A stretch of 23,891 nucleotides of DNA from Ramlibacter sp. (GTDB lineage: Bacteria; Pseudomonadota; Gammaproteobacteria; Burkholderiales; Burkholderiaceae_C), in assembly GCA_025351615.1 (NCBI GenBank), contig JANXVP010000463.1, positions 1 to 23,891 on the forward strand, written 5' to 3'. A model generated the notes under the pieces. That model searched no databases. It was not told the DNA's origin and saw nothing but the letters and a program-made list of their open reading frames with translations. Positions 16,952 to 23,409 of the stretch are shown here, piece by piece. Each line of letters starts with the position of its first letter. The first letter of the stretch is position 1. Position numbers and translations under genes: made by a program.

Positions 16952-18067
16952 ATGCACAACATCCTCATCATCTCGGGCACTCGCCCGGAAATCATCAAAC
17001 TCGCGCCGGTCTTTCAGGAACTCATGAAAGCCCCATGGGCTCGCGTTGAGTGGCTGCATACCGGACAGCACGGTGAAATGGCAAGTCAGATTCTCGACTG
17101 TTTTGACGTCGTGCCTGACATGACGCTGACCCGCGCCGGGACGAGTTTGCAGGACTTCAGTACAGGCTGCAGGCAACAGCTCGAAGCGGTGATGGAGCAA
17201 CGAAAATGGTCGCTGGTCATTGTTCAAGGCGATACCGAGAGCGCGTTCCAGGGCGCGCTGGCCGCGTTTTACCACCGTGTGCCATTGGCGCATGTCGAGG
17301 CCGGGCTGCGCACCCACAACCTGGGTCGTCCCTTTCCTGAAGAGGGCCTGCGACAGATGATCAGCCGCCTGGCGCAGTTTCACTTTCCGCCGACGCAACG
17401 TTCTCGTGCGGCGCTGAAGACTGAAGGCATCGTAGACGGCCAGATTTACCTGACCGGCAACACCGTGATTGACGCGCAGCAGTGGACCTGCGCGAACCGC
17501 GGAGTCAAACGCACCGCGACCGGCCGCGGTCACCTTCTTGTCACCGTCCATCGGCGCGAGAACTGGGGCGATGATGTCGCCGAGATTTGCCGCGCAATTG
17601 CTGAGATCGCACGCAAGCGGCCGGACCTGGACGTGCTCTTCCCAGTCCATCTGAATCCAGTGATCCAGGGGCCGGTCAACGCGATTCTGGGAGGTATCGA
17701 GAACGTGAAGCTGACAGCGCCGCTTGGCTACACAGAAATGCAGCAGTCGCTCGCGGACGCGTGGTTGGTGTTGACCGATTCAGGTGGACTGCAGGAAGAG
17801 GCGCCCACCTTCGGTGTGCCGGTGCTGGTGTTGCGGGAGGAAACTGAGCGGCCCGAAGCGGTGGAGGCCGGTTGCGCCTTGCTGATCGGACCGACCCGGC
17901 GTGCAATTGTCGATCACGTCACCCGTCTTCTGGGCGATCCAATGGCCTACCGGAAGATGTCGCAGGCCGGCAATCCATTTGGCGACGGCACGGCAGCCCG
18001 GAAGATCGTGCACGCGTTGGCGGCCACCTTCGCTGTGAAACCGGTTGCGCTGCCGGCCTTGGCCTGA
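16952..18067 (+). CDS. wecB: UDP-N-acetylglucosamine 2-epimerase, non-hydrolysing (WecB/MnaA type)
   Basis: Interconverts UDP-GlcNAc and UDP-ManNAc, giving ManNAc-type precursors for surface glycans. The 371-residue protein aligns along its whole length with the family. Motifs are GTRPEIIKLAP at the N-terminus, HTGQHGEM, QGDT with D94, HVEAGLRT with E116, PFPEE with E130, TVHRRENWG with H200, PVHLNP, and the UDP-binding LTDSGGLQEEAP and LREETERPE. D94, E116, E130 and H200 match the catalytic residues D95, E117, E131 and H213 of E. coli WecB, and the hydrolysing NeuC-type pattern is not seen. It is the first gene of the polysaccharide locus, 25 bases before the glycosyltransferase. The Shine-Dalgarno is weak. 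The symbol is by family. Confidence 0.92.
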   Translation: MHNILIISGTRPEIIKLAPVFQELMKAPWARVEWLHTGQHGEMASQILDCFDVVPDMTLTRAGTSLQDFSTGCRQQLEAVMEQRKWSLVIVQGDTESAFQGALAAFYHRVPLAHVEAGLRTHNLGRPFPEEGLRQMISRLAQFHFPPTQRSRAALKTEGIVDGQIYLTGNTVIDAQQWTCANRGVKRTATGRGHLLVTVHRRENWGDDVAEICRAIAEIARKRPDLDVLFPVHLNPVIQGPVNAILGGIENVKLTAPLGYTEMQQSLADAWLVLTDSGGLQEEAPTFGVPVLVLREETERPEAVEAGCALLIGPTRRAIVDHVTRLLGDPMAYRKMSQAGNPFGDGTAARKIVHALAATFAVKPVALPALA

Positions 18068-18092
18068 CCATCTTTTAACAGGAACGCCACGC

Positions 18093-19304
18093 ATGCCGAA
18101 CCCGATTTTCTCAATGGGGCCAAGGAACATGACCAGTGCCTCCGTATCCCTTCTGACGCTCGCACGCAGAGTCATAGCCTGTATGTCGGCGTGCGTTGCA
18201 CGTGTTCAACCGGCCTTTGCCGAGTCGGGCGCGGCAGGCCTCGCGCCGTCCTTCAAGGACTACCGGCTGGCGTCGGTGATGGCCTGCCTGCTGATTGCGA
18301 TCGTGGTGTTGATGGCGCTATACGGACTTCGCCATTTCATCTTCACAATGAATCGCCTGGCTGGAACGCAACGGCATCCTTATATCGACATCGCTGTCGC
18401 GCGGTGGCCGATCGTCACTGTTTTCATTGCCGCGCACAACGAAGAGAAGGTCATTGCCGGCTGCATCGAGGCGCTGCTCAATACCGACTACCCGGCAGAG
18501 CGGCTGAAGATCATTCCGGTCAATGACCGCTCCGTCGATAAGACCGGGGCCATCATCGACAGCTACGCGACGCGCCATCCCTCCCGCATTTCTCCCTTTC
18601 ACCGGGTGGGGGGAAATTCCGGCAAGGCTGCGGCACTCAAGGAAGCTCTCCTTCAAGCCGATGGTGACATTGCGATCATTTTCGATGCCGACTATGTTCC
18701 TGGCCGCGGGTTGATCAAGCAACTGGTGGCGCCGTTTTTCGATCCTGAAGTCGGCGCGGTCATGGGTCGGGTCGTGCCGGTCAACAGCGGCGTCAATCTG
18801 CTGACTCGACTGCTGGATCTGGAGCGCTCGGGCGGCTACCAGGTCGACCAGCAGGCACGGATGAACATGAACCTGTTGCCGCAGTACGGTGGAACCGTTG
18901 GCGGCGTGCGTCTATCCGCGGTTGCGGCGGTCGGAGGCTGGCACGACGACACATTAGCCGAAGACACTGACATTACTTTCCGGCTGATGTTCAATGGGTG
19001 GAAGACGGTCTATACCAATCGCTCGGAGTGCTATGAAGAAGTCCCCGAGGACTGGAGCGTGCGGATCAAGCAAGTCACACGATGGGCCAAGGGACATAAC
19101 CAGGTCATGGCGCGCTACTGGTGGCAGTTTGCAACCAGCCCTTACCTGACGCTGTGGCAGCGCATCGACGGCCTGATGCTGCTTTTCGTGTTCATCATTC
19201 CGCTGGTGATGCTGTTTGGCTGGTGCCTCGCGCTCGGGCTCTATTTCATGAATGCGGGCTCGCTCCTGTCGCAGCTGATCCCTGTGTTTGCGCTGATGAT
19301 CTAA
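18093..19304 (+). CDS. Processive family-2 glycosyltransferase, cut short by an in-frame TAA
   Basis: Predicted inner-membrane synthase that polymerises a sugar nucleotide and moves the chain outward, like BcsA, PgaC or NfrB/YaiP-type enzymes. ATG 18093 is chosen for its AGGAA (18080-18084) 8 bases upstream; the frame is open back to 18045. The 403-residue part contains an unusual N-terminal leader (1-60), a first membrane helix (about 67-85), and a GT-A domain with DAD (198-200), EDTD (290-293) and QVTRW (327-331), the D,D,D,Q(Q/R)XRW signature of processive enzymes. Membrane helices follow near 360-400. TAA at 19302 interrupts the protein, but the same frame runs on to 19526, and that tail belongs to the same protein. 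The catalytic core is intact; the missing tail probably helps form the export channel. As read here it is probably non-functional unless there is readthrough or a base error. Confidence 0.85.
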   Translation: MPNPIFSMGPRNMTSASVSLLTLARRVIACMSACVARVQPAFAESGAAGLAPSFKDYRLASVMACLLIAIVVLMALYGLRHFIFTMNRLAGTQRHPYIDIAVARWPIVTVFIAAHNEEKVIAGCIEALLNTDYPAERLKIIPVNDRSVDKTGAIIDSYATRHPSRISPFHRVGGNSGKAAALKEALLQADGDIAIIFDADYVPGRGLIKQLVAPFFDPEVGAVMGRVVPVNSGVNLLTRLLDLERSGGYQVDQQARMNMNLLPQYGGTVGGVRLSAVAAVGGWHDDTLAEDTDITFRLMFNGWKTVYTNRSECYEEVPEDWSVRIKQVTRWAKGHNQVMARYWWQFATSPYLTLWQRIDGLMLLFVFIIPLVMLFGWCLALGLYFMNAGSLLSQLIPVFALMI

Positions 19305-19526
19305 GGCACCTTGGGCAACTTCGCCGCCTTCTTTGAAATCGTGATCGCCGTACTGCTCGACGGCAACCGGCGCCGGCTGCGCTTGCTGCCGTTCAATATG
19401 CTGGGCTTTATGATCAGCCTGTTCGCAATTTCCGGCGCCGTCTGGAGTTCGATGCTCGACAGCCTTCTCAACCGCGAGATGGTCTGGGACAAGACGATTC
19501 GATACCGTGCGGAGGTGACCCAGTAA
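19305..19526 (+). pseudogene. Detached C-terminal tail of the glycosyltransferase
   Basis: Seventy-three codons directly after the TAA at 19302-19304, in the same frame. They encode GTLGNFAAFFEIVIAVLLDG, a basic RRRLRLLP linker, a strong membrane helix (MLGFMISLFAISGAVW) and a polar end. This is the usual end of a processive GT2 protein, where a G-N-F-A-x-F-x-E segment follows the membrane helices. There is no ribosome-binding site or good start for separate translation; the first possible start is TTG 19311. The final TAA (19524-19526) shares its last A with the ATG of the next gene, showing that the original gene ended here. A single change from TAC or TAT (Tyr) would create the TAA. Confidence 0.8.
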
Positions 19527-20563
19527 TGGCCGCTGACATTCTTCCCTACGCCAGCTTCTGGCTGGTATGTTTGGCGATCCTGGTCCTGCCCTTCGTGCCG
19601 GCATTCCGCGAATGGCGGCATCCCACCGACGCCCTGCCACTACCGGTCCTGCCCAACTACACCAGCGACATCGACCACTTCGCCAGGCGCCTTCGAGCCG
19701 ATGTGTCGTCGAAACTGGGCCGGGGATCACCGACCGGGTATGAGGATTTCGAGATGGTAGGCGACGCACGCCCGGAAATGGATTGGAGCAAGAAGCGGCA
19801 GCGGATGATCTCGGGGGCTATCACAACCGAAGCTCCCATCCGCAGTCCCCAGCAGCTCTACGTGCAAGGCAGTATGCATGCCGGCGGCGGATCGGCCTTT
19901 CCGTCGTTGTACGCGACGGGTGATATCGACTTGGGCGACGAAAGCGAAGTTCGGGACTGGGCACATGCCGACGGCGCTGTGAAGCTGGGCGAGAAGTGCG
20001 TCGCGTTGCGACGGATTTCGGCAGGAACGCGCATCGAACTGGGGAACCAGTCGTGGTTCGAGCGGATGCAAGCTCCGACACTGTATTTCGGCTCGCGTGC
20101 CGGCCGGTCTATGCCTGCCGCGGACACCCGGCAGATTCCGGCCGACTTTGCGGATCTGCCTGATGCGGTTCAGCAAACGCCTTCGCTGTTCCTTGTTCGC
20201 GGCAATTGCACTTTGCCCCCTGGCCGATTCTATCGGGGGTCGCTGGTGGTGACAGGCTTTTTGACAATTGGCGCCGGCACAACCGTTGTGGGCGATATCA
20301 AGGCCCGTGATGGCGTCAGACTGGATCGCCAGGCCCAGGTCCGGGGCGCGCTGACGTGCGAAAAACGGATTTATCTATTCAATGAAGCCCGGGTTGACGG
20401 TCCTGTAATTTCCGAGAGCGATCTGCTGGTCGGCACGGGGGTTGTGGTCGGCTTGGTCGATGTCCAAACAACGGTCAGTGCGGCCAATATCATTGTCGAA
20501 GAAGGAGTCGTGGTCCATGGCGCGGTCTGGGCCCATGAAATCGGAATGGTGAAGCCGGCGTGA
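19526..20563 (+). CDS. Membrane-anchored bactofilin-like (polymer-forming cytoskeletal) protein
   Basis: 345 residues. One N-terminal membrane helix (about 8-27) is followed by a charged linker (28-95) and then two blocks of short beta-strand repeats, about 98-190 and 224-340. In these, hydrophobic residues alternate with Gly and turns, as in LVVTGFLTIGAGTTVVGDI and GALTCEKRIYLFNEARVDG, the right-handed beta-helix pattern of bactofilin (DUF583) proteins. Bactofilins form polymers without nucleotide and act as scaffolds for wall or envelope enzymes. Most are a single soluble domain; the double block behind a membrane anchor is notable. It starts in a TAATG overlap with the glycosyltransferase frame and overlaps the next gene by 4 bases (GTGA), so it is coupled to the synthase. 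A scaffold or gating role is inference. Confidence 0.72.
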   Translation: MAADILPYASFWLVCLAILVLPFVPAFREWRHPTDALPLPVLPNYTSDIDHFARRLRADVSSKLGRGSPTGYEDFEMVGDARPEMDWSKKRQRMISGAITTEAPIRSPQQLYVQGSMHAGGGSAFPSLYATGDIDLGDESEVRDWAHADGAVKLGEKCVALRRISAGTRIELGNQSWFERMQAPTLYFGSRAGRSMPAADTRQIPADFADLPDAVQQTPSLFLVRGNCTLPPGRFYRGSLVVTGFLTIGAGTTVVGDIKARDGVRLDRQAQVRGALTCEKRIYLFNEARVDGPVISESDLLVGTGVVVGLVDVQTTVSAANIIVEEGVVVHGAVWAHEIGMVKPA

Positions 20564-21543
20564 CGTGGCTGCACTTCATGTCGCGCTGGCTCCTGGTTGC
20601 TGTCTTGGGCTATGGCACTGTCGCCGGCGCAGGGACACGACTGGAGCTCAGCGGCTACACGGACGGCAGTGGCGCTATCACGGTCCTGCACCGGGGCGAC
20701 TCGGTCGATCCGTATTTCGCGATGCAAGCCCTTTTGCTTGCGTACGACAATGGGATGGACATTTCGGGTTCGGCCGAAATGTTTGTGAACTGGCTGCTGC
20801 CGCAGCAAAAGCCCGACGGCACTTTCGACCGTTTCTGCCATGGGGCCGACAGGAAGTGGGTGTCGTGCAAGACCGCGGATGCGGACGACTCTCTTTTGGC
20901 CATCTGGATGCGCTTGCTTGAGACGATGCCGTTGCAGTTGCGCACCATCCCTGCCTGGGCAAAAAGTCACTCCATCAGCGAAGCGTCGCTCGATCATTTG
21001 TTCCAGCCGTCGCGGGGCATTTACATGGTTTCCCCTTTGTACCTGCACGGGCTGTTCATGGACAACCTGGAGGTCTGGTCGCTCAACGTCCATTCAAAGC
21101 AGCCGGTCCGGGTGGCTGCTGCCGATAAACTGGCGCGAGCGATCAACGAAACTTTCTGGGACGCGGAGAAGAAGCGATTCTTGGTGTCAACCCAGCTCGA
21201 GCAGAAAACACAGGCGCAGGCCTTCTATCCCGACAAGGTCGCCCAGATTTTCCCGATGCTGGTGGATTTTCCGGTGCCTGGCGGAGATTCGCGATCGTAT
21301 TACCGCAACTGGATGAAGACGCATCGGGCTGAGTGGTTACGACAGGGGGACGCAGATTATCCCTGGGGCCTTCTTGCGGTCCTTGCGATCCGCCAGGGCG
21401 ATCAGTCCAGCGCCCGTTGCTGGATCCGTGGAGCGGCGCCGCTGCGCCACGGTTCGCGGTGGGCGATCACCGATGACATTTCTTATCAGATCCTGGTCAA
21501 CAAGGGCATCGCGGCGGCGCCCAAGGCGGATCCCTGCAAATGA
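20560..21543 (+). CDS. Exported alpha/alpha-toroid glycosidase-like protein
   Basis: 327 residues with an N-terminal signal sequence (about 7-24, ending AGA) and a helix-rich body. It shows spaced hairpin segments typical of six-hairpin glycosidases: AMQALLLAYDNGMDI, MFVNWLLPQQKPDGTFDRF, ADADDSLLAIWMRLL, FMDNLEVWSLNV, AINETFWDAEKKRF and DADYPWGLLAVLAI. D107, D109, D110 and E171 are candidate catalytic acids. Cysteines at about 93 and 103 may form a disulfide in the periplasm. I cannot place it in a named GH or PL family. Periplasmic hydrolases or lyases (BcsZ, PelA, PgaB, AlgL) are common in synthase-dependent polysaccharide loci, so trimming or clearing the polymer is likely. GTG 20560 gives the 4-base overlap; ATG 20578 is an alternative that keeps the signal sequence. 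Confidence 0.7.
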   Translation: MTWLHFMSRWLLVAVLGYGTVAGAGTRLELSGYTDGSGAITVLHRGDSVDPYFAMQALLLAYDNGMDISGSAEMFVNWLLPQQKPDGTFDRFCHGADRKWVSCKTADADDSLLAIWMRLLETMPLQLRTIPAWAKSHSISEASLDHLFQPSRGIYMVSPLYLHGLFMDNLEVWSLNVHSKQPVRVAAADKLARAINETFWDAEKKRFLVSTQLEQKTQAQAFYPDKVAQIFPMLVDFPVPGGDSRSYYRNWMKTHRAEWLRQGDADYPWGLLAVLAIRQGDQSSARCWIRGAAPLRHGSRWAITDDISYQILVNKGIAAAPKADPCK

Positions 21544-21556
21544 AAAATGAACAACT

Positions 21557-22396
21557 ATGAAATCGACGGCCATTTCCCCAATCGATGATTTACGCGAGCA
21601 CGACAGGATGTTCAGTGCCGCATTTGCCGAAGTCCGCAGCGCCCGCGCCCGGCTTGTCCAGGTGCGTCCCCACCGGGCTATCACGCCACTCACGGTGACT
21701 CCGTACCTGCTCGCTCAGGCCATCCTGCTGCCGGTGATACTGTGCGCAGTGCTGTATTGGGCCAAGCCGCAGCTGTTCGATTTCTGGCGCGGATGCATTC
21801 TCTTCTGGTCCGGGCAGCTGGATTTGAACTTTGGCCTGTCGGCCCTGCTGAACGATGCGGGGCAACATGCCTTGATGTTGCCAAGACGTGAGCAGGAAGC
21901 ACCAATGCCGGGCGCGATCATGCTGGTGTTGACTTCGGTGGTCGCCATCGCCGTCTTCGCGCTGTCTTTCGGTATGAAACGTGCGAAGCTACCGCTCAAG
22001 ATCCCGCTGCGGATCATTTCCGTGGTCCAACTCATCGCGGTGGTCTACTTCTGGCTGGCGCCCACTGACTTTCCCTACAGCATCGCCCGGCACAGCGAAG
22101 ACCTCATGACCATCGGTTATGCGTTGATGCTGGCGACGCCGTTGATGCTAGCCATCGGTTATTACATCCTGAATCTGAGCCTGCCTGTCAAGCTGTTTCA
22201 CACCGCGCTGATCCTGCTTTTCATGGCCATCATGGTTCCGCACCAGGTCCTCGTCCAGGCCTTCATCATGGAGCACCTTTCGGTGCTCTTCATGCCGGTC
22301 CTCTATATCTGTTTCGGAGCCGTGTTTGACGCATTGGTCTTCGTTGCGCTGTATTCGTGGGCTGTCAGTAATGCGCCTGTCGACGCCGCAGTTTGA
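21557..22396 (+). CDS. Unrecognised six-pass inner-membrane protein in polysaccharide locus
   Basis: 279 residues. A soluble basic N-terminus (1-46, with several Arg between 27 and 40) is followed by about six membrane helices at roughly 48-68, 119-139, 151-168, 184-207, 211-228 and 240-268. A loop of about 50 residues between helices 1 and 2 carries WRGCILFWSGQLDLNFGLSALLNDAG. I do not recognise a family and see no catalytic motif. It lies 13 bases after the toroid gene and is last in the tightly packed part of the locus. It could be an accessory subunit of the synthase, a transporter or an acyltransferase-like protein; the number of helices is low for an MBOAT or a flippase. Ribosome-binding site weak. 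Confidence 0.7.
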   Translation: MKSTAISPIDDLREHDRMFSAAFAEVRSARARLVQVRPHRAITPLTVTPYLLAQAILLPVILCAVLYWAKPQLFDFWRGCILFWSGQLDLNFGLSALLNDAGQHALMLPRREQEAPMPGAIMLVLTSVVAIAVFALSFGMKRAKLPLKIPLRIISVVQLIAVVYFWLAPTDFPYSIARHSEDLMTIGYALMLATPLMLAIGYYILNLSLPVKLFHTALILLFMAIMVPHQVLVQAFIMEHLSVLFMPVLYICFGAVFDALVFVALYSWAVSNAPVDAAV

Positions 22397-22530
22397 ATCG
22401 GGCGCGCAAGGCGAGACACGGGCCGGCACGCTTGCCGCCGATTTCATATTCAACTGGCAAAATTTTATTTTTCTGCGTTATGTTCCATCGAAAATCCAAC
22501 TTCCTGAGTGCTCCTGACTAAGCACGATCT
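22397..22530 (+). promoter_or_regulatory. A/T-rich gap with leader hairpin before the YaiO-type gene
   Basis: 134 bases, with a clearly A/T-rich stretch at 22440-22500 unlike the flanking genes, suggesting a promoter of its own. No -35/-10 pair is convincing. A small hairpin (GTGCT 22508-22512 with AGCAC 22521-22525) ends 5 bases before the ATG, at the place where a ribosome-binding site would be, and no clear Shine-Dalgarno is seen. Confidence 0.35.
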
Positions 22531-23409
22531 ATGAATAGAACATACCTTGTCTCGCTGGTCGTGACCGGCGTCTGCGGGCCCCTCGCTTTTTCTGCTTCCG
22601 CGCAAAACTCACTTCCGGACCGCACGGCCCCGGAGATGCCGGTAATGCTCGCGCAGGCTGCAATCGAGCCCCCGCCAACCTCGACACCTGTCCCGCCAGC
22701 CTCCCGGTCGGGCGTTGACGTTTACACGAGTCTGCACCAGCTTTCCAGCGGCTTCGGCAACTGGCGCGAAGTCGGCATACGCGGCTCCTATGAATCGGGC
22801 GCCCATCGACTGCGGGCGGAACTGGCCTCAATGCGTCGATATGGCGAGTCGGGAAACTATGTCGGCGCAGGCGATACCGTCACCTTCAGCGAGGACTGGT
22901 TCGCATCGCTTTCGGCCGGCGCCGGAGACGGGGCGTTTTATCTGCCCCGGTATCGGCTCGATGCGTTTGTCAACCGGAAATTTCTCCCTGGCAGGAATCT
23001 CATCGGGACCGTTGGGGCGGGCTATTACCGCGCCCCGGACGGGCACGCCGACCGCAGCGCAAGCCTAGGAGCAACCTACTATTTCAGCCAGCCCCTGGTT
23101 GTGCAAGGAGAAGTACGGTTTAACAACAGCACCCCCGGAAGTATCCGGACGCGGCAGCAATTTATCGCGGCGACGTGGGGCCGAGACAAGGAAACCCAGG
23201 TCATCGGCCGCTATGGCTGGGGCCGCGAGGGGTACCAGACGGTCGCCCAGGGCATGTCGCTGGTCGACTTTCGCAGCAATGAGGCCAGCCTGAAGGTGCG
23301 GCATTGGCTGGGCCCGAATTGGGGGGTACAGGTTGGCGTCGAGCGCTACCGAAATCCGTTCTATGTCCGAAGCGGGGGCAATCTCGGATTTTTCTGGCAA
23401 CTGCCATAG
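22531..23409 (+). CDS. YaiO-family outer-membrane beta-barrel protein
   Basis: 292 residues. A signal peptide ends SASA|Q near residue 24, followed by a Pro/Thr-rich linker (about 35-58). The rest is amphipathic beta-strands with aromatic ends, such as VDVYTSLHQLSSGFGNWRE, GDTVTFSEDWFASLSAGAGD, RYRLDAFVNRKFLPGRNLIGTVGAG, SLGATYYFSQPLVVQGEVRF, ending NLGFFWQLP. The layout and the YYR / YYF-QPL strands match the YaiO type of outer-membrane barrel, whose E. coli member lies near the glycosyltransferase gene yaiP. It likely forms the outer-membrane part of the polysaccharide locus. No TPR scaffold domain is present, unlike BcsC or PgaA. Weak ribosome-binding site; A/T-rich leader upstream. Confidence 0.75.
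   Translation: MNRTYLVSLVVTGVCGPLAFSASAQNSLPDRTAPEMPVMLAQAAIEPPPTSTPVPPASRSGVDVYTSLHQLSSGFGNWREVGIRGSYESGAHRLRAELASMRRYGESGNYVGAGDTVTFSEDWFASLSAGAGDGAFYLPRYRLDAFVNRKFLPGRNLIGTVGAGYYRAPDGHADRSASLGATYYFSQPLVVQGEVRFNNSTPGSIRTRQQFIAATWGRDKETQVIGRYGWGREGYQTVAQGMSLVDFRSNEASLKVRHWLGPNWGVQVGVERYRNPFYVRSGGNLGFFWQLP

What the first reader, a model, noticed from the sequence alone, without database searches (positions are those of the whole stretch)
19290..19526. In-frame TAA splits the polysaccharide synthase, yet the rest of the gene is intact
Frame 18093-19526 codes one continuous family-2 glycosyltransferase except for one TAA at 19302-19304 (codon 404). Residues on both sides (FALMI / GTLGNFAAFFE) join as in relatives, the tail still looks under protein-coding constraint, and the end still forms the TAATG overlap with the next gene. 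One base change from a Tyr codon explains it. Options are a recent loss-of-function (polysaccharide and possible phage receptor switched off), stop-codon readthrough as an on/off control, or a base-call error.
Basis: partly seen in the sequence, partly recalled or inferred. Interest (0 to 1): 0.72.

Follow-up and report, generated by a model that had tools for sequence, protein, structure and literature searches.

The report
Stop codon interrupting polysaccharide synthase gene
One draft bacterial genome carries a single premature stop in an otherwise intact polysaccharide-making gene, most likely an ordinary recent knock-out mutation (or an assembly error) rather than a new control switch.

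Summary
The frame 18093-19526 has one in-frame TAA at 19302-19304 (codon 404 of 477) and is otherwise an intact family-2 polysaccharide synthase. All 119 non-self relatives listed by the database search run through this point (118 Tyr, 1 Phe), as do 59 of 60 genome loci. In a draw of 399 family genomes, this is the only one of 26 synthase places with a stop. The part after the stop matches relatives about as well as the part before it, so the stop is recent or an artefact. An intact relative is modelled with a cellulose/hyaluronan-synthase-like fold. The stop follows the catalytic domain but removes the last membrane helices and a WxKT motif invariant in 39 aligned sequences, so loss of function is the best prediction. 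Readthrough has no support: no relative seen shares the stop, UAA is the least leaky stop, no unusual RNA fold was found, and no suppressor tRNA is among the 24 found (an incomplete set). Without raw reads, a real mutation and a base error in this 583-contig assembly cannot be separated. Nonsense losses of polysaccharide genes are well documented, so interest is low.

The parts
16952..18067 (+). wecB-type non-hydrolysing UDP-N-acetylglucosamine 2-epimerase, intact
   Evidence: TIGR00236 407.5 bits against cut-off 210.15; PF02350
18093..19304 (+). first 403 codons of the family-2 polysaccharide synthase, with the catalytic domain, ending at the premature TAA
   Evidence: PF13641, PF13632, PF00535 above cut-off; alignment with 119 relatives
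19302..19304 (+). in-frame TAA at codon 404, where the listed relatives have Tyr (118) or Phe (1)
19305..19526 (+). in-frame continuation (73 codons and TAA) coding the last membrane helices and the WxKT motif of the synthase
   Evidence: helices as modelled for intact relative P0002
19511..19515 (+). GGAGG, likely ribosome-binding site of the next gene, lying inside the interrupted tail (judged by eye)
   Evidence: sequence upstream of 19526
19526..20563 (+). bactofilin-like protein gene, intact; its start overlaps the synthase's final stop
   Evidence: PF04519 27.2 bits, just under cut-off 27.9; same strand in 45 of 45 long loci
20560..21543 (+). conserved 327-aa protein of unknown family in the cluster, intact
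   Evidence: no Pfam or NCBIfam family at E 0.001 (only a 0.11 match); same strand in 39 of 45 long loci
21557..22396 (+). conserved 279-aa protein, hydrophobic by eye (probably membrane-bound), intact
   Evidence: no Pfam family; same strand in 44 of 45 long loci
22531..23409 (+). YaiO-type outer-membrane beta-barrel protein, intact
   Evidence: TIGR04390 175.8 bits, cut-off 32; PF19413

Best explanation
A recent single nonsense mutation in the synthase gene of an accessory exopolysaccharide cluster in a Ramlibacter-like bacterium. Shown: one TAA, an otherwise intact reading frame, intact genes in the relatives examined, neighbouring genes of full length. Inferred: translation ends at residue 403 and yields a catalytic domain without the last membrane helices and without the C-terminal WxKT segment, which may be the gating loop. 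The truncated synthase would then not make or export polymer, and the rest of the cluster, though intact, would be idle. The mutation is young, because no near-invariant residue of the tail has changed.
Against: The same sequence would result from one base error in a 583-contig, 91.1%-complete assembly. No reads, second strain or second sample was available: the nearest non-self protein, P0002, is 87% identical (95% over residues 60-403). Loss of activity is predicted from homology and a model of a relative, not measured. The catalytic domain is complete, so some residual activity is conceivable.
Confidence: 0.63

Rival explanations
1. Base-call or assembly error (or a minority-strain allele picked by the assembler); the gene is intact in the organism.
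For: Draft assembly of 583 contigs with 2.65% contamination; single substitution in an otherwise intact frame with no sign of decay; no independent copy of this allele found.
Against: The neighbouring cluster genes are full length, and by eye the other ORFs of the window have ordinary lengths. Consensus substitution errors are usually rare in short-read assemblies (general knowledge, not measured here; my own baseline failed).
Confidence: 0.3
2. Programmed or regulated readthrough of the TAA as an on/off or two-product switch.
For: The tail stays conserved and in frame; the position separates the catalytic domain from the last helices.
Against: No relative seen shares the stop: 0 of 119, 0 of the other 25 places. 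UAA is described as least read through in bacteria (PMC5289835, passages). The RNA 19280-19380 folds no better than shuffles (z 0.89). No UUA-anticodon suppressor is among 24 tRNAs, though tRNA-Tyr, -Phe, -Cys, -Asp, -Glu and -Ile were not among them. Five other window genes and the synthase's own final stop use TAA.
Confidence: 0.03
3. The 403-residue protein is a working shortened synthase, or the two parts act as a split protein with the tail re-initiated from an internal start.
For: Catalytic domain lies before the stop, as do the DAD, AED and QxxRW motifs of P0002; candidate internal starts exist in the tail, the first at 19311, 19341, 19383 and 19398.
Against: None of the relatives seen ends here. 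The stop falls at the end of modelled helix 396-405, inside a hydrophobic stretch of about 385-424. The tail holds residues invariant in 39 aligned sequences. By eye no good ribosome-binding site precedes the internal starts; the only clear one serves the next gene.
Confidence: 0.04

Closest known systems
Nonsense and frameshift losses in bacterial cellulose (bcs) operons of E. coli (K-12 bcsQ, ATCC 8739 bcsE, ST95 bcs genes)
   Same: A point change gives a premature stop in an otherwise intact exopolysaccharide operon; lack of cellulose is reported for K-12 and for ST95 strain MS7163 (PMC5944007 passages; PMC10881479 passages)
   Different: There many strains and phenotypes were compared; here one draft genome, no phenotype, probably another polymer and another gene cluster
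BcsA cellulose synthase and hyaluronan synthases (processive membrane family-2 synthases)
   Different: Sequence identity only 18% and 17% in those two rows; the CelA model scores 78.1 against a cut-off of 699.1 on the 403-aa piece; no PilZ hit; the window's copy is cut before the last helices
PgaC/IcaA poly-N-acetylglucosamine synthase
   Same: Best NCBIfam model of the catalytic part (131.6 bits)
   Different: Far below the equivalog cut-off of 422.3; the neighbours are wecB, bactofilin-like and YaiO, and named no other Pga protein among them

Membership tests
Recent nonsense-interrupted gene (young pseudogene) | In-frame stop where intact relatives have a sense codon | tested here: met
   119 of 119 listed relatives; only 1 of 26 family places has a stop
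Recent nonsense-interrupted gene (young pseudogene) | The change is real in the organism, not an assembly error | not testable with these tools
   No reads held; nearest independent protein is 87% identical
Recent nonsense-interrupted gene (young pseudogene) | Product inactive | not testable with these tools
   Inferred only, from lost helices and lost invariant residues
Programmed stop-codon readthrough | Stop conserved in relatives | tested here: not met
   0 of 119; 0 of 25 other places
Programmed stop-codon readthrough | Leaky stop codon and stimulatory RNA structure | tested here: not met
   UAA followed by G, UAA being least leaky (PMC5289835 passages); fold of 19280-19380 z 0.89; actual leakiness not measured
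Programmed stop-codon readthrough | Suppressor tRNA or reassigned TAA | tested here: inconclusive
   None among 24 tRNAs, but the tRNA set is incomplete; TAA ends five other window genes and the synthase frame itself
Phase variation by repeat slippage | Short repeat tract at the switch point | tested here: not met
   No repeats in 19200-19420 (which leaves out units of 1-3 bases); by eye no single-base run over 3 in 19280-19340; frame is kept
Processive membrane family-2 polysaccharide synthase | GT-A family-2 domain with DxD, TED-like and QxxRW motifs | tested here: met
   Pfam hits of the window's 403-aa piece; DAD 198, AED 289, QxxRW 327 in P0002
Processive membrane family-2 polysaccharide synthase | Membrane helices after the catalytic domain forming the channel | tested here: inconclusive
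PgaC/IcaA (TIGR03937) | Score above the equivalog cut-off | tested here: not met
   131.6 against 422.3 bits for the 403-aa piece
Cellulose synthase CelA (TIGR03030) | Score above cut-off | tested here: not met
   78.1 against 699.1 bits for the 403-aa piece

The most novel reading that the evidence does not exclude
The TAA is a true, selected off-state of the synthase in this lineage, partly read through, so that cells make a mix of a 403-residue catalytic protein and rare full-length synthase, with the intact downstream genes kept for use when full-length synthase is made.
Probability: 0.03. Interest if true: 0.6.

Novelty: new member of a known kind. Interest (0 to 1): 0.14.

Why it matters
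If real, it is one more case of an exopolysaccharide lost through a single point mutation, here caught very young, and it marks a strain in which the rest of a widespread cluster (wecB, synthase, bactofilin-like, YaiO and two unknown proteins) should be idle. It also shows the limit of reading single draft assemblies: one base decides between 'gene lost' and 'gene intact'. It gives no sign of new genetic decoding.

Tried and rejected
Readthrough, recoding, phase variation and split-gene readings were tested and found unsupported.

A baseline of nonsense-interrupted genes in the own genome was attempted from 60 contigs (385,290 of 3,860,082 bases) with two codon-usage scorers. Neither reported the known TAA at 19302 (downstream score 1.9 at 50 codons), so the positive control failed. 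Their candidates (3; 5 and 5) were not followed, and no rate is claimed.

Both are models of the intact relative P0002, not of the window's protein.

Rows dropped: one search counts only loci with head identity of 50% or more, so the distant matches L007-L031 and L090 (29%) are out, as are L001 and L002 (the window itself). One search scored only 7999 candidates, 4641 passed, and the best 120 were listed; all 119 non-self ones were used. In one search the 399 genomes are an even draw from a larger family and the cut was E 1e-60. The codon pattern caught only 28 places in the 59 loci, so no count is taken from it.

Paper searches: YaiO with YaiP and polysaccharide, 0 papers; YaiO with outer membrane and exopolysaccharide, 4 papers, by title not about such a cluster, none opened; bactofilin with glycosyltransferase and operon, 1 review, not opened; premature stops in assembled genomes, 0; stop codon readthrough, 88 papers, 8 listed, one opened for passages.

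Not claimed: that any phage uses this polymer.

Full report
What is there. The window is one contig (C322) of a 583-contig draft genome, 91.1% complete with 2.65% contamination. One same-genus genome, G004, has a contig of the same length (21979) and match as a record titled Ramlibacter sp. MGR_bin146, so the host is probably Ramlibacter-like (inference). The frame from ATG 18093 is interrupted by TAA at 19302-19304, codon 404, stays open for 73 more codons and ends at TAA 19524-19526, which overlaps the ATG of the next gene.

It is an interruption, not a natural end. I aligned the window's two pieces, with X at the stop, with the 119 non-self proteins listed by the database search (120 listed of 4641 that passed). 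All 119 run through column 404, 118 with Tyr and 1 with Phe; all end at the window's columns 476 or 477; and columns 405-415 are identical in every one. Among 60 loci with head identity of at least 50% (L003, L005, L032-L089), 59 keep both parts in one open frame. The exception, L086 (Aquitalea pelogenes), has a frameshift near residue 316, a different break. A search of 399 genomes drawn from the family, with intact relative P0002, found 26 synthase places in 25 genomes; the window's is the only one with a stop inside, and it served as positive control for that count.

Age. Against nine relatives the tail's pN differs from that of the head (residues 77-403) by at most about 0.03: slightly higher in seven, lower in two. 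Against the adjacent 73 codons of the head (331-403) it is lower in seven and higher in two. For L045 the pairs pN/pS are 0.069/0.711 (tail), 0.065/0.629 (head) and 0.078/0.469 (adjacent 73 codons). None of 46 near-invariant tail columns has changed in the window, against 1 of 232 in the head. With 102 nonsynonymous sites in those columns, zero changes give a 95% upper bound of about 0.029 neutral substitutions per site since the stop arose. So the stop is either very recent or not real. This does not show that the tail is translated today.

The surroundings. The synthase lies between a wecB-type UDP-GlcNAc 2-epimerase and genes for a bactofilin-like protein, two unknown proteins and a YaiO barrel, all of full length against relatives. 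In 45 loci of at least 12.5 kb (of 59 in that set, all chosen for having the synthase), matches on the same strand were found for the bactofilin-like protein in 45, the 279-aa protein in 44, wecB in 41, YaiO in 41 and the 327-aa protein in 39; all five in 36. In many of the more distant loci the wecB match is only about 40% identical and lies elsewhere in the locus. The frequent epimerase suggests that UDP-ManNAc feeds the polymer (inference). Only 3 of 37 same-genus genomes, own included, carry a strong match, so the cluster is accessory there and its loss is plausible. The next gene's likely ribosome-binding site is inside the tail at 19511-19515, so it may still be translated, apart from possible polarity.

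Alternatives. Readthrough: UAA is described as the least read-through stop in bacteria (PMC5289835, passages). The stretch 19280-19380 shows no unusual RNA fold (z 0.89), and no repeat was found. None of the relatives seen shares the stop. No suppressor tRNA is among the 24 tRNAs found, but tRNA-Tyr, -Phe and others are missing from that set, so the test is weak. TAA ends five other window genes and the synthase frame itself (gene names mostly given by eye), so a genome-wide reassignment of TAA is very unlikely. Base error: cannot be excluded. No same-species copy appeared in what I searched (best non-self protein 87%), no reads are held, and my attempt at a genome-wide baseline failed its positive control. 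One loose end: the cluster of P0001 has two member sequences on one contig, and I could not see the second.

Known precedents. E. coli K-12 carries a premature stop in bcsQ from one nucleotide change and makes no cellulose; ATCC 8739 has one in bcsE (PMC5944007, passages). ST95 E. coli carry several independent bcs losses (PMC10881479, passages). The present case is of that kind.

Verdict. Observation confirmed. A recent nonsense mutation is most likely (0.63), a sequence error next (0.30); a working or split short form (0.04) and readthrough control (0.03) are unlikely. These odds are judgement, not computed. Interest is low.

Noticed in passing
16952-23409: A conserved cluster: wecB-type epimerase, BcsA/HAS-like synthase, bactofilin-like protein, 327-aa and 279-aa unknown proteins, YaiO barrel. 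It recurs from Polaromonas to Chromobacterium and in part in Gemmatimonadota. Three paper searches listed none about it.
   Followed up: partly
21557-23409: The 279-aa gene precedes YaiO in the window but follows it in the Polaromonas loci that hold both.
   Followed up: no
L086 near 6765: The synthase of Aquitalea pelogenes CCM 7557 is split by a frameshift near residue 316 in that draft assembly: a separate break of the same gene, or an assembly error.
   Followed up: partly
19305-19523: The C-terminal WxKT segment of the synthase tail is invariant at W, K and T across 39 sequences and could be this family's gating loop.
   Followed up: no
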